A stretch of DNA of 64,000 nucleotides from Archangium primigenium (GCF_016904885.1 NZ_JADWYI010000001.1:7559224-7623223); one strand, 5' to 3'; positions 875 to 6,354 are shown, numbered from the stretch's first letter. Made by a program: numbers and translations. Notes: generated from the letters alone by a model not told the origin.

Positions 875-950
<76 letters not shown>

Positions 951-1044: not shown

Positions 1045-1656
1045 ATGACCGACCAGCCCTCGCTCTCGTTCTTCGCCCGTCTGTGGCTCGCCCTGGTGTG
1101 CTTCTGGCGGATCTGGCTCGACCGCTCGTTCGCCCAGGCGGTGCTGCCGGTGCGCCAGGCGGACATCGCGGGCCGCCTGCCGGCCGGGGCCCCCGTCGAG
1201 TCGGCGCCCGCGCCCGCCCCCGCTCCCGTGCCCGCCCCGGTCCCGCCGCCCGTGGTCGCCGTGCCGCCCGAGCGCGAGCACGCCTCGGCGCTGCAACTGC
1301 TGGCCATGCTCCAGCGCGAGGGCCGCCTCATCGACTTCCTCCAGGAGGACGTGGCGGCCTTCCCGGACGAGGACGTGGGCGCCGCGGCGCGCATCGTGCA
1401 CGAGGGGTGCCGCAAGCTCGTGCGGCAGTACTTCACCCTGGAGGCGGTGCTGCCCCAGGGCGAGGGGGAGCGGGTGCAGGTGCCCGCCGGGTTCGACGCC
1501 CAGCGCATCCGCCTGACGGGCAACGTGGCCGGCCAGCCTCCTTATAGTGGTGCCCTCAAGCACCACGGCTGGGTGGCCACCGCCCTCACCCTGCCCAGCC
1601 CCAGCCCGGCGATGGACCCCCGGGTGCTCGCGCCCGCCGAAGTCGAGCTGTCCTGA
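1045..1656 (+). CDS. DUF2760 domain protein, first gene of a chaperone cluster
   Basis: This 203-residue protein begins at ATG with an amphipathic or membrane-proximal N-terminus (F-F-A-R-L-W-L-A-L-V-C-F-W-R-I-W-L). A Pro/Ala linker covers about residues 50-75. The conserved DUF2760 region follows (about 80-195), with L-Q-L-L-A-M-L-Q-R-E-G-R-L-I-D-F-L, an E-D-V-A pattern and a terminal H-H-G-W segment. The family has no known biochemical role. The family assignment is from remembered motif patterns. It sits 36 bp upstream of two Hsp70-like genes on the same strand, with no terminator visible, so the three probably form one operon and this protein is a candidate co-factor or membrane tether for those chaperones. 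That function is inferred only from context. Confidence 0.8.
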   Translation: MTDQPSLSFFARLWLALVCFWRIWLDRSFAQAVLPVRQADIAGRLPAGAPVESAPAPAPAPVPAPVPPPVVAVPPEREHASALQLLAMLQREGRLIDFLQEDVAAFPDEDVGAAARIVHEGCRKLVRQYFTLEAVLPQGEGERVQVPAGFDAQRIRLTGNVAGQPPYSGALKHHGWVATALTLPSPSPAMDPRVLAPAEVELS

Positions 1657-1692
1657 CCGTTTTCCTTCCGACTCCTTCCTCACGGAGCCTCC

Positions 1693-3546
<1,854 letters not shown>

Positions 3547-3564
3547 AACCTCCCCCCAACGCCT

Positions 3565-6354
3565 ATGCACATCGTCGGCATCGACCTCGGAACCACCCAC
3601 TGCGCCGTCGCCTCGGTGGACCCCGCCCAGGGTCCCGGAGCCCCCTTGAGGGACTTCCCCGTGCCCCAATTGGTCCGGCAGGGCGAGGTGAGCGCGAGGC
3701 CCCTGCTGCCCTCGTGCATCTACGTGCCCGCCGGACATGAGCTCGCCGCCGGGGCCCTGACGCTGCCCTGGGGCGAGGGCGGCCCCCAGGTGGTGGGCGA
3801 GTTCGCCCGGTGGCAGGGCGCGCGGGTGCCCGGCCGGGTGGTGACGAGCGCCAAGAGCTGGCTGTGCCACCCGGGCGTGGATCGCTCGGCCCCCATCCTC
3901 CCCTGGGGCGCGCCCGCGGACGTGGCCAAGCTGTCCCCGGTGGAGGCCAGCGCCCTGTTGCTCGGGCACATCGCCCAGGCGTGGAACCATGCCCACCCGG
4001 CGCTGCCCCTGTCCCAGCAGGAGGTGGTCATCACCGTGCCCGCCTCCTTCGACGAGGCCGCGCGCGCCCTCACCGTGAGCGCCGCGCGCCGCGCCGGGCT
4101 GGAGAAGTTCACCCTCCTGGAGGAGCCCCAGGCCGCCTTCTACGACTACACCGCGCGCCACCGGGGCGCGCTGGCGCAGGCCCTGGAGTCCGTGCGCCTC
4201 GTGCTGGTGGTGGACGTGGGCGGCGGCACCACGGACTTCACGCTCGTGCACGCGGGCGTCACCCCCGAGGGCCCCATCCTGCGCCGGCTCGCGGTGGGCG
4301 AGCACCTCATGCTCGGCGGCGACAACATGGACGCCGCGCTCGCCCGGCGCCTGGAGGAGAAGCTCTTTCCCGAGGGCAACCGCCGCCTGTCCGCCACCCA
4401 GTGGACCCAGGCGCTCCAGGCCGCCCGCACCGCCAAGGAGGCCCTGCTCGGCACCACCCCGCCCGAGCGCCACGGCGTGTCGCTCGTGGCCGAGGGCAGC
4501 CGCCTGCTCGGGGGCTCCCTGTCCACGGAGCTCACGCGCGAGGAGGCCGAGGCGCTCGTGCTCGAGGGCTTCTTCCCCCTGGCCGGCGCCCAGGAGCGGC
4601 CCCGGCGCGCCTCACGCATGGCCCTGCAGGAATTGGGGCTGCCGTACGCGCAGGACGCCGCCATCACCCGGCACCTGGCCGCCTTCCTCGCCCAGCACGC
4701 CGCCGCGGGTTTCGCCGCCCTGGGGGAGCCCGCGCCGCGCGAGGGCGCCCTGCCCCGGCCGGATGCCCTCCTGCTCAACGGCGGCGTCTTCAACTCGCCC
4801 CGGCTCGCCGAGCGGCTGGTGGAGGCGGTGAGCGCCTGGTGGCCGGACGCCCCACGCATCGCGCTGCTCAAACACGAGTCCCTGGAGCTCGCCGTGGCCC
4901 GGGGCGCGGCCTACTACGGCCTGGTGCGGCGCGGCCATGGCCTGCGCATCGGGGGCGGCGCGGCCCGCGCGTACTACGTGGCCCTGCAGCGCGCGGCGGA
5001 CAGCACCGAGCAGCCCGTGCTGTGCCTCGTGCCCCGCGGCTTCGAGGAGGGCAACCACGCGGACATCGGCGAGCGCTCGTTCTCGCTCACGCTCGGGCGG
5101 CCCGTGCAGTTCACCCTCTACTCCACCACGAGCGATCGCATCGACAAGCCGGGCGACGTGGTGACGCTGACCGAAGCGCTCCAGGACGAGCTCAAGCCCC
5201 TGCCGCCCATCCACACGGTGCTCAAGGGCGCCACGGCGAAGACGGCCGAGGTGCCCGTGCACCTGCGCGCGGGGCTCACGGAGATCGGCACGCTGGAGCT
5301 GTTCGCCGTGTCCAACGTGGCCGACGAGCGCTGGCGCCTGGAGTTCGAGCTGCGCGGCACCGGCGGCGAGCGCGAGCTCACCGTCACCGAGTCCATGCCC
5401 GCGCGCTTCGCCGAGGCCAAGGACAACGTCGAGCGGCTCTACGGCAACAAGCCCCTGCCCATCGGGCCCAAGGACGTGAAGCAGCTCTCGCGCACGCTCG
5501 AGAAGGTGCTCGGCCCGCGCGACACCTGGCGCGTGCCCGTGCTGCGCGAGCTGTGGAGCTCCCTGTTCGCCGGCGCCTCCAAGCGCCGCCGCTCCGCGGA
5601 TCACGAGCGCGTCTTCTACAGCCTCGCGGGCTACACCCTGCGGCCCGGCTTCGGCTACCCGTTGGATCACTGGCGCGCCGAGCAGAGCTTCTCCCTCTTC
5701 GAGCCGCTCGTGCAGCACCACACGGAGAAGGCCGTGTGGGTGGAGTTCTGGGTGATGTGGCGGCGCGTGTCCGGCGGCCTGAGCGAGGCGCAGCAGCGCA
5801 AGCTCCACGACTACCTCAAGCCCCACCTGGCCCGGCGCATCCCGCTCACGCCCCCCGCCGCCGCGGGCAAGCTCAAGGGCATTCAACCCGAGGGCCTGGA
5901 CGAGATGGTGCGCACGGCGGCATCGCTTGAGCACCTGGAGGCCGCGGACAAGGCGGAGCTCGGCGAGTGGATGGCGGCGCGGCTGCGCGAGGAGAACAAG
6001 AGCGGCGGCCCCTGGCCGTGGGCGCTCGGACGGCTCGGCGCGCGCGTGCCCCTCTACGGCAGCGGCCACAAGGTCGTGGACGTGACCGTGGCGGAGGCGT
6101 GGCTCACCCTGCTCCTGGAGCTGGGGCTGTCGCGCATCGACGGGGCGCCGTTCGCGGCCGCCCAGCTCGCGCGGCTCACGGGCGACCGGATGCGCGATCT
6201 GAGCCCCGAGCTGCGCGAGCGCACGGCCCAGGCGCTGCGCGCGGCCAAGGCCGCGGACACCTGGGTGCGCATGGTGACGGAAGTGGTGGCGCTGGAGGCC
6301 GCGGACGAGGCGCGAGCCCTGGGCGATACGCTGCCCGCGGGCCTGCGCCTGTAG
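3565..6354 (+). CDS. Hsp70-family chaperone-like ATPase with long C-terminal extension
   Basis: This 929-residue protein is a tandem paralogue of the preceding gene. The ATPase half repeats the same signatures (I-D-L-G-T-T-H-C-A, V-V-D-V-G-G-G-T-T-D-F, L-N-G-G-V-F) and the same W-L-C-H-P-G-V-D-R / L-P-W-G-A-P insertion. After about residue 600 it continues with about 330 helix-rich residues (R-E-L-W-S-S-L-F, R-P-G-F-G-Y-P-L-D, E-F-W-V-M-W-R-R-V-S-G-G) that resemble the domain I recall as DUF3731, which replaces the usual lid. It is more than 280 residues longer than DnaK. Ordinary J-protein or GrpE partners are not encoded nearby. No terminator is visible before the convergent gene 12 bp away. 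Confidence 0.88.
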   Translation: MHIVGIDLGTTHCAVASVDPAQGPGAPLRDFPVPQLVRQGEVSARPLLPSCIYVPAGHELAAGALTLPWGEGGPQVVGEFARWQGARVPGRVVTSAKSWLCHPGVDRSAPILPWGAPADVAKLSPVEASALLLGHIAQAWNHAHPALPLSQQEVVITVPASFDEAARALTVSAARRAGLEKFTLLEEPQAAFYDYTARHRGALAQALESVRLVLVVDVGGGTTDFTLVHAGVTPEGPILRRLAVGEHLMLGGDNMDAALARRLEEKLFPEGNRRLSATQWTQALQAARTAKEALLGTTPPERHGVSLVAEGSRLLGGSLSTELTREEAEALVLEGFFPLAGAQERPRRASRMALQELGLPYAQDAAITRHLAAFLAQHAAAGFAALGEPAPREGALPRPDALLLNGGVFNSPRLAERLVEAVSAWWPDAPRIALLKHESLELAVARGAAYYGLVRRGHGLRIGGGAARAYYVALQRAADSTEQPVLCLVPRGFEEGNHADIGERSFSLTLGRPVQFTLYSTTSDRIDKPGDVVTLTEALQDELKPLPPIHTVLKGATAKTAEVPVHLRAGLTEIGTLELFAVSNVADERWRLEFELRGTGGERELTVTESMPARFAEAKDNVERLYGNKPLPIGPKDVKQLSRTLEKVLGPRDTWRVPVLRELWSSLFAGASKRRRSADHERVFYSLAGYTLRPGFGYPLDHWRAEQSFSLFEPLVQHHTEKAVWVEFWVMWRRVSGGLSEAQQRKLHDYLKPHLARRIPLTPPAAAGKLKGIQPEGLDEMVRTAASLEHLEAADKAELGEWMAARLREENKSGGPWPWALGRLGARVPLYGSGHKVVDVTVAEAWLTLLLELGLSRIDGAPFAAAQLARLTGDRMRDLSPELRERTAQALRAAKAADTWVRMVTEVVALEAADEARALGDTLPAGLRL

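What the first reader, a model, noticed from the sequence alone, without database searches (positions are those of the whole stretch)
1045..6354. DUF2760 - Hsp70 - Hsp70 cluster: a possible dedicated chaperone system
Three same-strand genes with small gaps (36 and 18 bp) encode an unknown-function membrane-proximal protein and two divergent Hsp70 ATPases. The Hsp70s share a non-DnaK insertion (W-L-x-H-P-G-V-D-R / L-P-W-x-A-P). One lacks an obvious lid and the other has about 330 extra residues in place of it. No J-protein or nucleotide exchange factor is encoded alongside, so DUF2760 could be the missing co-chaperone or tether. The direct observations are gene order, motifs and lengths; the shared function is inference.
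Basis: partly seen in the sequence, partly recalled or inferred. Interest (0 to 1): 0.62.

Follow-up and report, generated by a model that had tools for sequence, protein, structure and literature searches.

The report
Conserved DUF2760 and twin-Hsp70 operon
Three adjacent genes that travel together through several bacterial phyla encode two unusual Hsp70-type ATPases and a small protein with a membrane anchor; this is probably a dedicated chaperone-like machine that works without the usual J-protein helper, and it appears not to have been studied as a unit.

Summary
Window 1045-6354 (+) carries DUF2760 (PF10816), a lidless Hsp70 (HspA), and an Hsp70 whose lid is replaced by a helical DUF3731 domain (HspB). 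One correction: the shared W-L-x-H-P-G-V-D-R stretch is a divergent NBD segment, not an insertion.

DUF2760 and DUF3731 occur in the same genomes: 122 shared of 123 and 129 (193 Myxococcota), 10 of 10 and 11 (274 genomes, Vibrio's class), 8 of 8 and 8 (141 genomes, a Verrucomicrobiota class). In 80 of 80 retrieved loci an Hsp70 follows DUF2760 on the same strand. When the cassette splits, DUF2760 normally stays with HspA. No fourth gene recurs.

Both Hsp70s keep every ATPase residue tested but lost J-protein contacts (N170E and V218R in 82/82; linker replaced). DUF2760's N-terminus is an amphipathic hairpin in most lineages and a true transmembrane helix in others. I infer a membrane-tethered, J-independent Hsp70 pair with DUF2760 as adaptor or co-factor; binding and activity are untested. 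A probable M. xanthus HspB orthologue (MXAN_5323) is dispensable, but its loss lowers sporulation and peroxide survival.

The parts
1045..1656 (+). DUF2760 protein, 203 aa
   Evidence: PF10816 E 1.8e-50; single copy in the genome; model pLDDT 87.6
1069..1167 (+). N-terminal helical hairpin of DUF2760 (residues 9-41), probable membrane-binding element
   Evidence: Helices 9-25 and 27-41 in the model; hydrophobic and amphipathic; replaced by true TM helices in other lineages
1279..1647 (+). Conserved DUF2760 domain (residues 79-201)
1627..1650 (+). C-terminal tail L-A-P-A-E-V-E-L (residues 195-202)
   Evidence: Within 3 residues of the C-terminus in 71 of 76 relatives
1693..3546 (+). HspA: Hsp70 with NBD and SBDbeta-like domain, no lid, 617 aa
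3565..6354 (+). HspB: Hsp70 with NBD, SBDbeta and C-terminal DUF3731, 929 aa
5407..6351 (+). All-helical C-terminal region of HspB (residues 615-929) that holds DUF3731 (677-929)
   Evidence: PF12531 E 1.3e-88; helices in the model

Best explanation
The three genes form one dedicated Hsp70-type machine. SHOWN: the three proteins are co-inherited as a cassette in several phyla with overlapping or near-overlapping genes; both Hsp70s keep all ATPase residues tested and a substrate-binding beta domain; both have lost most J-protein contact residues and the canonical interdomain linker; HspA has no lid and HspB has a helical DUF3731 in its place; DUF2760 has a conserved C-terminal domain with a fixed C-terminal tail, behind an N-terminus that looks membrane-binding. 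INFERRED: DUF2760 sits on the cytosolic face of the inner membrane and docks mainly onto HspA through its conserved domain and tail, recruiting the Hsp70 pair and standing in for the J-protein and/or exchange factor. HspA and HspB work as a pair, DUF3731 serving as lid or partner-binding arm, on damaged or maturing proteins near the membrane under stress and during development.
For: Co-occurrence of DUF2760 and DUF3731: 122 shared of 123/129 in 193 Myxococcota (Fisher p 1e-41), 10 of 10/11 in 274 genomes of Vibrio's class (p 2e-17), 8 of 8/8 in 141 of a Verrucomicrobiota class (p-values ignore phylogeny). 103 of 105 single-contig cases have DUF3731 3-6 kb downstream on the same strand. 80 of 80 loci have an Hsp70 directly after DUF2760 and 69 the full order. 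DUF2760-HspA gap: median overlap of 4 nt. Split cassettes keep DUF2760 with HspA. Catalytic residues invariant in 82/82; N170E and V218R in 82/82, T173Q in 78/82, linker replaced, at positions linked to DnaJ action in PMC4022485. No recurring fourth gene. Varied membrane anchors. Probable orthologue MXAN_5323: deletion lowers sporulation and H2O2 survival, no complementation of E. coli dnaK (PMC8265645).
Against: No direct evidence of binding, ATPase stimulation or chaperone activity. DUF2760 lies apart from an intact HspA-HspB pair in G589 and survives in altered form without them in G130; G010 has HspB without the other two nearby. HspB keeps R167 in 23 of 42. The M. xanthus phenotype resembles that of other hsp70 deletions, and the orthology to MXAN_5323 rests on length (925 aa) and uniqueness, not on sequence. 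The window's own N-terminal helix is only borderline for a TM (Kyte-Doolittle 1.56).
Confidence: 0.5

Rival explanations
1. HspA and HspB form an Hsp70:Hsp110-like pair: HspB, with its large C-terminal extension, acts as nucleotide exchange factor for HspA, and DUF2760 only positions the pair.
For: Two ancient, always co-inherited Hsp70 paralogues, one with an extended C-terminus; Sse1/Hsp110 and the Hsp110:Hsc70 complex are among the Foldseek matches of HspB.
Against: HspB keeps every catalytic residue tested; DnaK structures match better than Hsp110; this does not explain why DUF2760 stays with HspA when HspB moves away.
Confidence: 0.2
2. The Hsp70s are ordinary clients of host J-proteins and GrpE encoded elsewhere; DUF2760 is the client or cargo of the pair, not its co-factor.
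For: The genomes searched have J-proteins elsewhere, 13 matches in this one; HspB keeps R167 in 23/42; one locus has a J-domain gene beside the cassette.
Against: N170E and V218R in 82/82 and loss of the VLLLD linker, whereas E. coli HscA, which has its own J-protein, keeps R167, N170, T173, V218 and an LLLD linker.
Confidence: 0.15
3. Not a protein-folding machine: the Hsp70-fold pair is an ATP-driven scaffold or switch (as with other actin-fold ATPases) for some membrane process, with DUF2760 as membrane receptor.
For: Linker replaced and no canonical lid, so classical clamp-and-lid substrate trapping may not operate; weak MreB-type hits; membrane anchor.
Against: The SBDbeta-like domain is retained; a probable orthologue has stress phenotypes; weak MreB hits are expected from the shared actin fold.
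Confidence: 0.12
4. The three genes are merely old neighbours kept together by descent, without a shared function.
For: Trees of the three proteins follow the same relations, as plain vertical descent would give.
Against: Sporadic presence in two classes (10 of 274 and 8 of 141) with near-perfect sharing, while the flanking genes do not persist.
Confidence: 0.03

Closest known systems
DnaK-DnaJ-GrpE (E. coli)
   Same: Hsp70 NBD and SBDbeta fold, intact ATPase residues
   Different: J-contact residues and linker changed, no alpha lid of DnaK type, no J-protein or GrpE in the operon, extra DUF2760 partner, two Hsp70s
HscA-HscB (Fe-S assembly)
   Same: Dedicated Hsp70 with its partner gene in the same operon; HscA is the best NCBIfam match
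   Different: HscB is a J-protein and HscA keeps the J interface; no Fe-S genes recur beside this cassette; match scores are far below the HscA cut-off (about 90 against 708 bits)
HscC-DjlC of E. coli
   Same: Divergent specialised Hsp70 with a neighbouring partner gene
   Different: DjlC is annotated as a J-type co-chaperone; HscC keeps R167, N170, T173 and V218
Hsp110/Sse1 with Hsp70
   Same: Two Hsp70-fold proteins together, one with an enlarged C-terminus
   Different: Bacterial, DUF3731 instead of the Hsp110 C-terminus, full catalytic set, extra DUF2760
CoCoNuT CnuD / CnuCD Hsp70-HEAT proteins (PMC11090510)
   Same: Hsp70 NBD/SBD with a helical repeat domain
   Different: No McrB/McrC neighbours recur here; ATPase residues intact
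MXAN_5323 of Myxococcus xanthus (PMC8265645)
   Same: 925-aa Hsp70, the same length as HspB in Myxococcus species; very probably the HspB orthologue
   Different: Studied there as a lone Hsp70; that paper's text does not mention MXAN_5322 or MXAN_5324, and the library holds no paper with DUF2760 or DUF3731

Membership tests
Hsp70 superfamily (HspA, HspB) | Hsp70/actin-fold NBD with conserved phosphate and catalytic residues | tested here: met
   D8, T11, K70, E171, D194, T199, D201 equivalents invariant in 82/82; PF00012 above cut-off
Hsp70 superfamily (HspA, HspB) | Substrate-binding beta domain | tested here: met
   HspB 1-597 aligns with DnaK/BiP NBD + SBDbeta, Z 32-38; HspA is homologous over the same span but was not folded itself
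DnaK (canonical bacterial Hsp70) | Equivalog-level match (TIGR02350, PRK00290) | tested here: not met
   About 58-68 bits against cut-offs of 822.55 and 648
DnaK (canonical bacterial Hsp70) | J-protein contact residues and VLLLD linker | tested here: not met
   N170E and V218R in 82/82, linker replaced
DnaK (canonical bacterial Hsp70) | Alpha-helical lid | tested here: not met
   Absent in HspA by length and homology; in HspB the C-terminus is DUF3731
HscA | Equivalog-level match TIGR01991 | tested here: not met
   87-91 bits against a cut-off of 708.55
J-domain protein (DUF2760) | J domain with HPD | tested here: not met
   Only DUF2760 matches in Pfam at E up to 10; HPD string in 1 of 76
GrpE-type exchange factor (DUF2760) | GrpE sequence or fold | tested here: inconclusive
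   No Pfam match; one GrpE chain at Z 3.0 over 56 residues among many unrelated helical chains
Hsp110/Sse (HspB) | Exchange-factor activity on a partner Hsp70 | not testable with these tools
   Biochemical property
PF10816 DUF2760 | Above the curated cut-off | tested here: met
   170 bits against 25
PF12531 DUF3731 | Above the curated cut-off | tested here: met
   297.5 bits against 25
Anti-phage defence system (PADLOC) | Convincing PADLOC match and a defence context | tested here: not met
   Only weak partial hits of the Hsp70 NBD to PDC-M61B; no recurring defence neighbours

The most novel reading that the evidence does not exclude
A new class of Hsp70 system: a membrane-tethered pair of lidless/extended Hsp70s whose ATP cycle is driven by a non-J, non-GrpE co-chaperone (DUF2760), possibly through its nearly invariant C-terminal APAEVEL tail.
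Probability: 0.33. Interest if true: 0.82.

Novelty: new variant of a known kind. Interest (0 to 1): 0.58.

Why it matters
Hsp70 cycles are generally taken to depend on J-proteins and exchange factors. A widespread, co-inherited Hsp70 pair that has shed most J-protein contacts and has its own membrane-linked partner would show another way to run the machine, and would give functions to two Pfam domains of unknown function that no paper in the held library names. M. xanthus offers a ready test: the probable HspB gene can be deleted and has a measurable peroxide and sporulation phenotype.

Tried and rejected
HspA-HspB gene fusion: long open frames (about 1,500-1,850 aa) in some genomes looked like fusions, but the genes lie in different frames with stops between; the frames are due to high GC. 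J-protein or GrpE nearby: phmmer with E. coli sequences was insensitive (it missed HscB and DjlC in its own control), so PF00226 was searched in 13 whole genomes: only G198 has a J-domain right beside the cassette; GrpE was screened only with the insensitive method. Recurrent fourth gene: flanking families recur within close groups only; no Pfam family in more than 3 of 139 neighbours. Genes between HspA and HspB, where present, look unrelated by eye (a zinc-finger-like ORF; porin-like and antiporter-like ORFs). Fold of DUF2760: Foldseek has no match at E 0.001 and the best second-look Z is 4.0; this does not show a new fold. DUF3731 was not folded alone, so its fold is untested. Defence system: only weak PADLOC hits. 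Viral contigs: no relative found with the single window sequence. Mirror-tree correlations (0.92-0.96) are not corrected for the species tree and are not used as proof. Tree (quick method): HspA is one clade (support 100), HspB is one group but for one locus that falls beside the outgroup.

Full report
OBSERVATION. The window lies in a 9.5-Mb Myxococcota genome (the phylum follows from named relatives such as Corallococcus, up to 83% identical). The three ORFs, their strand, lengths and the 36- and 18-bp gaps are as stated. Pfam gives DUF2760 for the first, Hsp70 for the second, and Hsp70 plus DUF3731 for the third. DUF2760 and DUF3731 are each single-copy in the genome. Of 13 Hsp70-like matches in the genome, HspA and HspB stand apart as a pair: HspB matches HspA at E 2e-152, the next at about 1e-12.

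CORRECTION. The motif W-L-x-H-P-G-V-D-R / L-P-W is shared and absent from DnaK, but it is not an insertion. From K70 to E171 (DnaK numbering) HspA and HspB are about 10 residues shorter than DnaK; the extra ~30 residues lie upstream, between the phosphate-1 motif and K70.

In 193 Myxococcota genomes DUF2760 is in 123 and DUF3731 in 129, shared by 122. Of the 105 with both on one contig, all have the same strand and 103 have DUF3731 3-6 kb downstream. In 274 genomes of the class of Vibrio mediterranei the counts are 10 and 11, shared 10; the eleventh has HspA running into a contig end. In 141 genomes of a Verrucomicrobiota class they are 8 and 8, the same eight. The 14 control genomes have neither. 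A scan of genome contigs returned 80 loci from Myxococcota, Burkholderiales (Massilia, Duganella, Trinickia), gammaproteobacteria (Vibrio, Competibacteraceae, Methylothermaceae) and Verrucomicrobiota/Lentisphaerota bins. All 80 have an Hsp70 directly downstream of DUF2760 on the same strand and 69 show the full cassette; the others are cut by contig ends or lack HspB next door, and for the three of these whose genomes were searched (L067, L103, L125) DUF3731 is present in the genome. That scan kept the best 80 of more than 500 relatives, so it is not an even sample; the class-wide family searches are.

EXCEPTIONS. HspB is away from DUF2760-HspA in several lineages (e.g. L043, L044, L047, L048, L049, L176, L178). 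In G589 DUF2760 lies apart from a complete HspA-HspB pair, and in G130 a DUF2760 with a deletion in its domain remains with no HspA or HspB orthologue in the genome. G010 keeps HspB without HspA or DUF2760 beside it. So the tightest bond is DUF2760-HspA, whose genes overlap by 4 nt in the median case, which suggests translational coupling.

STAND-ALONE UNIT. Flanking genes recur only among close relatives, and among 139 nearest-neighbour ORFs no Pfam family occurs more than three times. In 13 whole genomes searched with PF00226, J-domain genes are scattered and only one genome has one beside the cassette.

THE HSP70S. HspB was folded from 42 orthologues (pLDDT 87.0, pTM 0.82): residues 1-597 match DnaK NBD + SBDbeta (Z 32-38) and residues 615-929 are all-helical. 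HspA is homologous to HspB 1-600 and ends there. Seven catalytic residues are invariant in 82 of 82 sequences. Positions tied to DnaJ binding or stimulation in DnaK (listed in PMC4022485) are changed: N170 to E and V218 to R in all 82, T173 to Q in 78, R167 to T in most HspA (R kept in 23 of 42 HspB), and the linker VLLLD to I-R-G-G-T (HspA) or I-G-G-G-S/A (HspB). E. coli HscA, which has its own J-protein, keeps R167, N170, T173, V218 and an LLLD linker; HscC keeps the four residues with a modified linker. I read this as loss of the canonical J-protein interface; whether another contact replaces it is not known.

DUF2760. The model (pLDDT 87.6, pTM 0.58, so the placement of its parts is unsure) has an N-terminal helical hairpin, a Pro/Ala linker, helices 75-129, a small beta part and the tail A-P-A-E-V-E-L. 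That tail lies within three residues of the C-terminus in 71 of 76 proteins. No solved structure resembles the protein convincingly by sequence or by Foldseek. The N-terminus is an F-F-A-R-L-x-L-A hairpin in most lineages but a true hydrophobic helix in Vibrio, Methylothermaceae, other gammaproteobacteria and some Verrucomicrobiota. Basic residues follow the helix in several (L134, L189, L178), which by the positive-inside rule puts the domain in the cytosol with the Hsp70s (inference). Different anchors on one conserved domain argue that membrane attachment is functional. Start codons were chosen by rule, so individual N-termini may be off.

LITERATURE. No paper in the held library contains DUF2760 or DUF3731. 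In M. xanthus, MXAN_5323 is a 925-aa Hsp70 (PMC8265645); HspB of three of the four Myxococcus species checked is 925 aa and the fourth 924, so it is very probably the orthologue, by length and uniqueness, not by sequence comparison. Its deletion is viable, lowers sporulation and H2O2 survival, leaves motility and predation normal, and the gene does not replace E. coli dnaK. In RNA-seq it was one of two exceptions to unchanged or decreased hsp70 expression on heat shock; qPCR showed no obvious rise. Other non-DnaK hsp70 deletions gave similar defects, so this is weak evidence for a specific pathway.

VERDICT. The cassette is real, conserved and probably a functional unit; the tether idea is favoured, the co-chaperone idea is plausible, and neither is demonstrated. 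The domains are catalogued in Pfam; the unit as described, with its missing J interface and variable membrane anchors, appears undescribed in the sources available here.

Noticed in passing
window 875-950 (+): tRNA-Ala (anticodon CGC) directly upstream of the cassette.
   Followed up: no
L061, L064, L072, L076, L080, L117: Cassettes in Verrucomicrobiota/Lentisphaerota metagenome bins are closer to those of Myxococcaceae (HspA about 70-75%) than many Myxococcota cassettes are; transfer of the whole cassette between phyla or mis-binned contigs.
   Followed up: partly
HspA residue 504, HspB residue 487, DUF2760 residue 122 (window proteins): Near-invariant cysteines: 40/40 in HspA, 41/42 in HspB, over 90% in DUF2760. 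A redox role would fit the peroxide phenotype of MXAN_5323, but this is speculation.
   Followed up: no
L098 about 2835-3455 (+): The one locus (Competibacteraceae) with a J-domain gene just upstream of DUF2760, same strand.
   Followed up: no
L073, HspB gene: HspB is interrupted by about 2.4 kb between residues 375 and 400, perhaps a mobile element.
   Followed up: no
PMC7085900 (Burkholderia proteome study): A 65-kDa 'Hsp70 family protein' (WP_004524146) seen on 2-D gels has a primer site that translates to GEHILL, like the HspA motif G-[DE]-H-I-L-L-G-G-D-N; possibly an expressed HspA relative.
   Followed up: no
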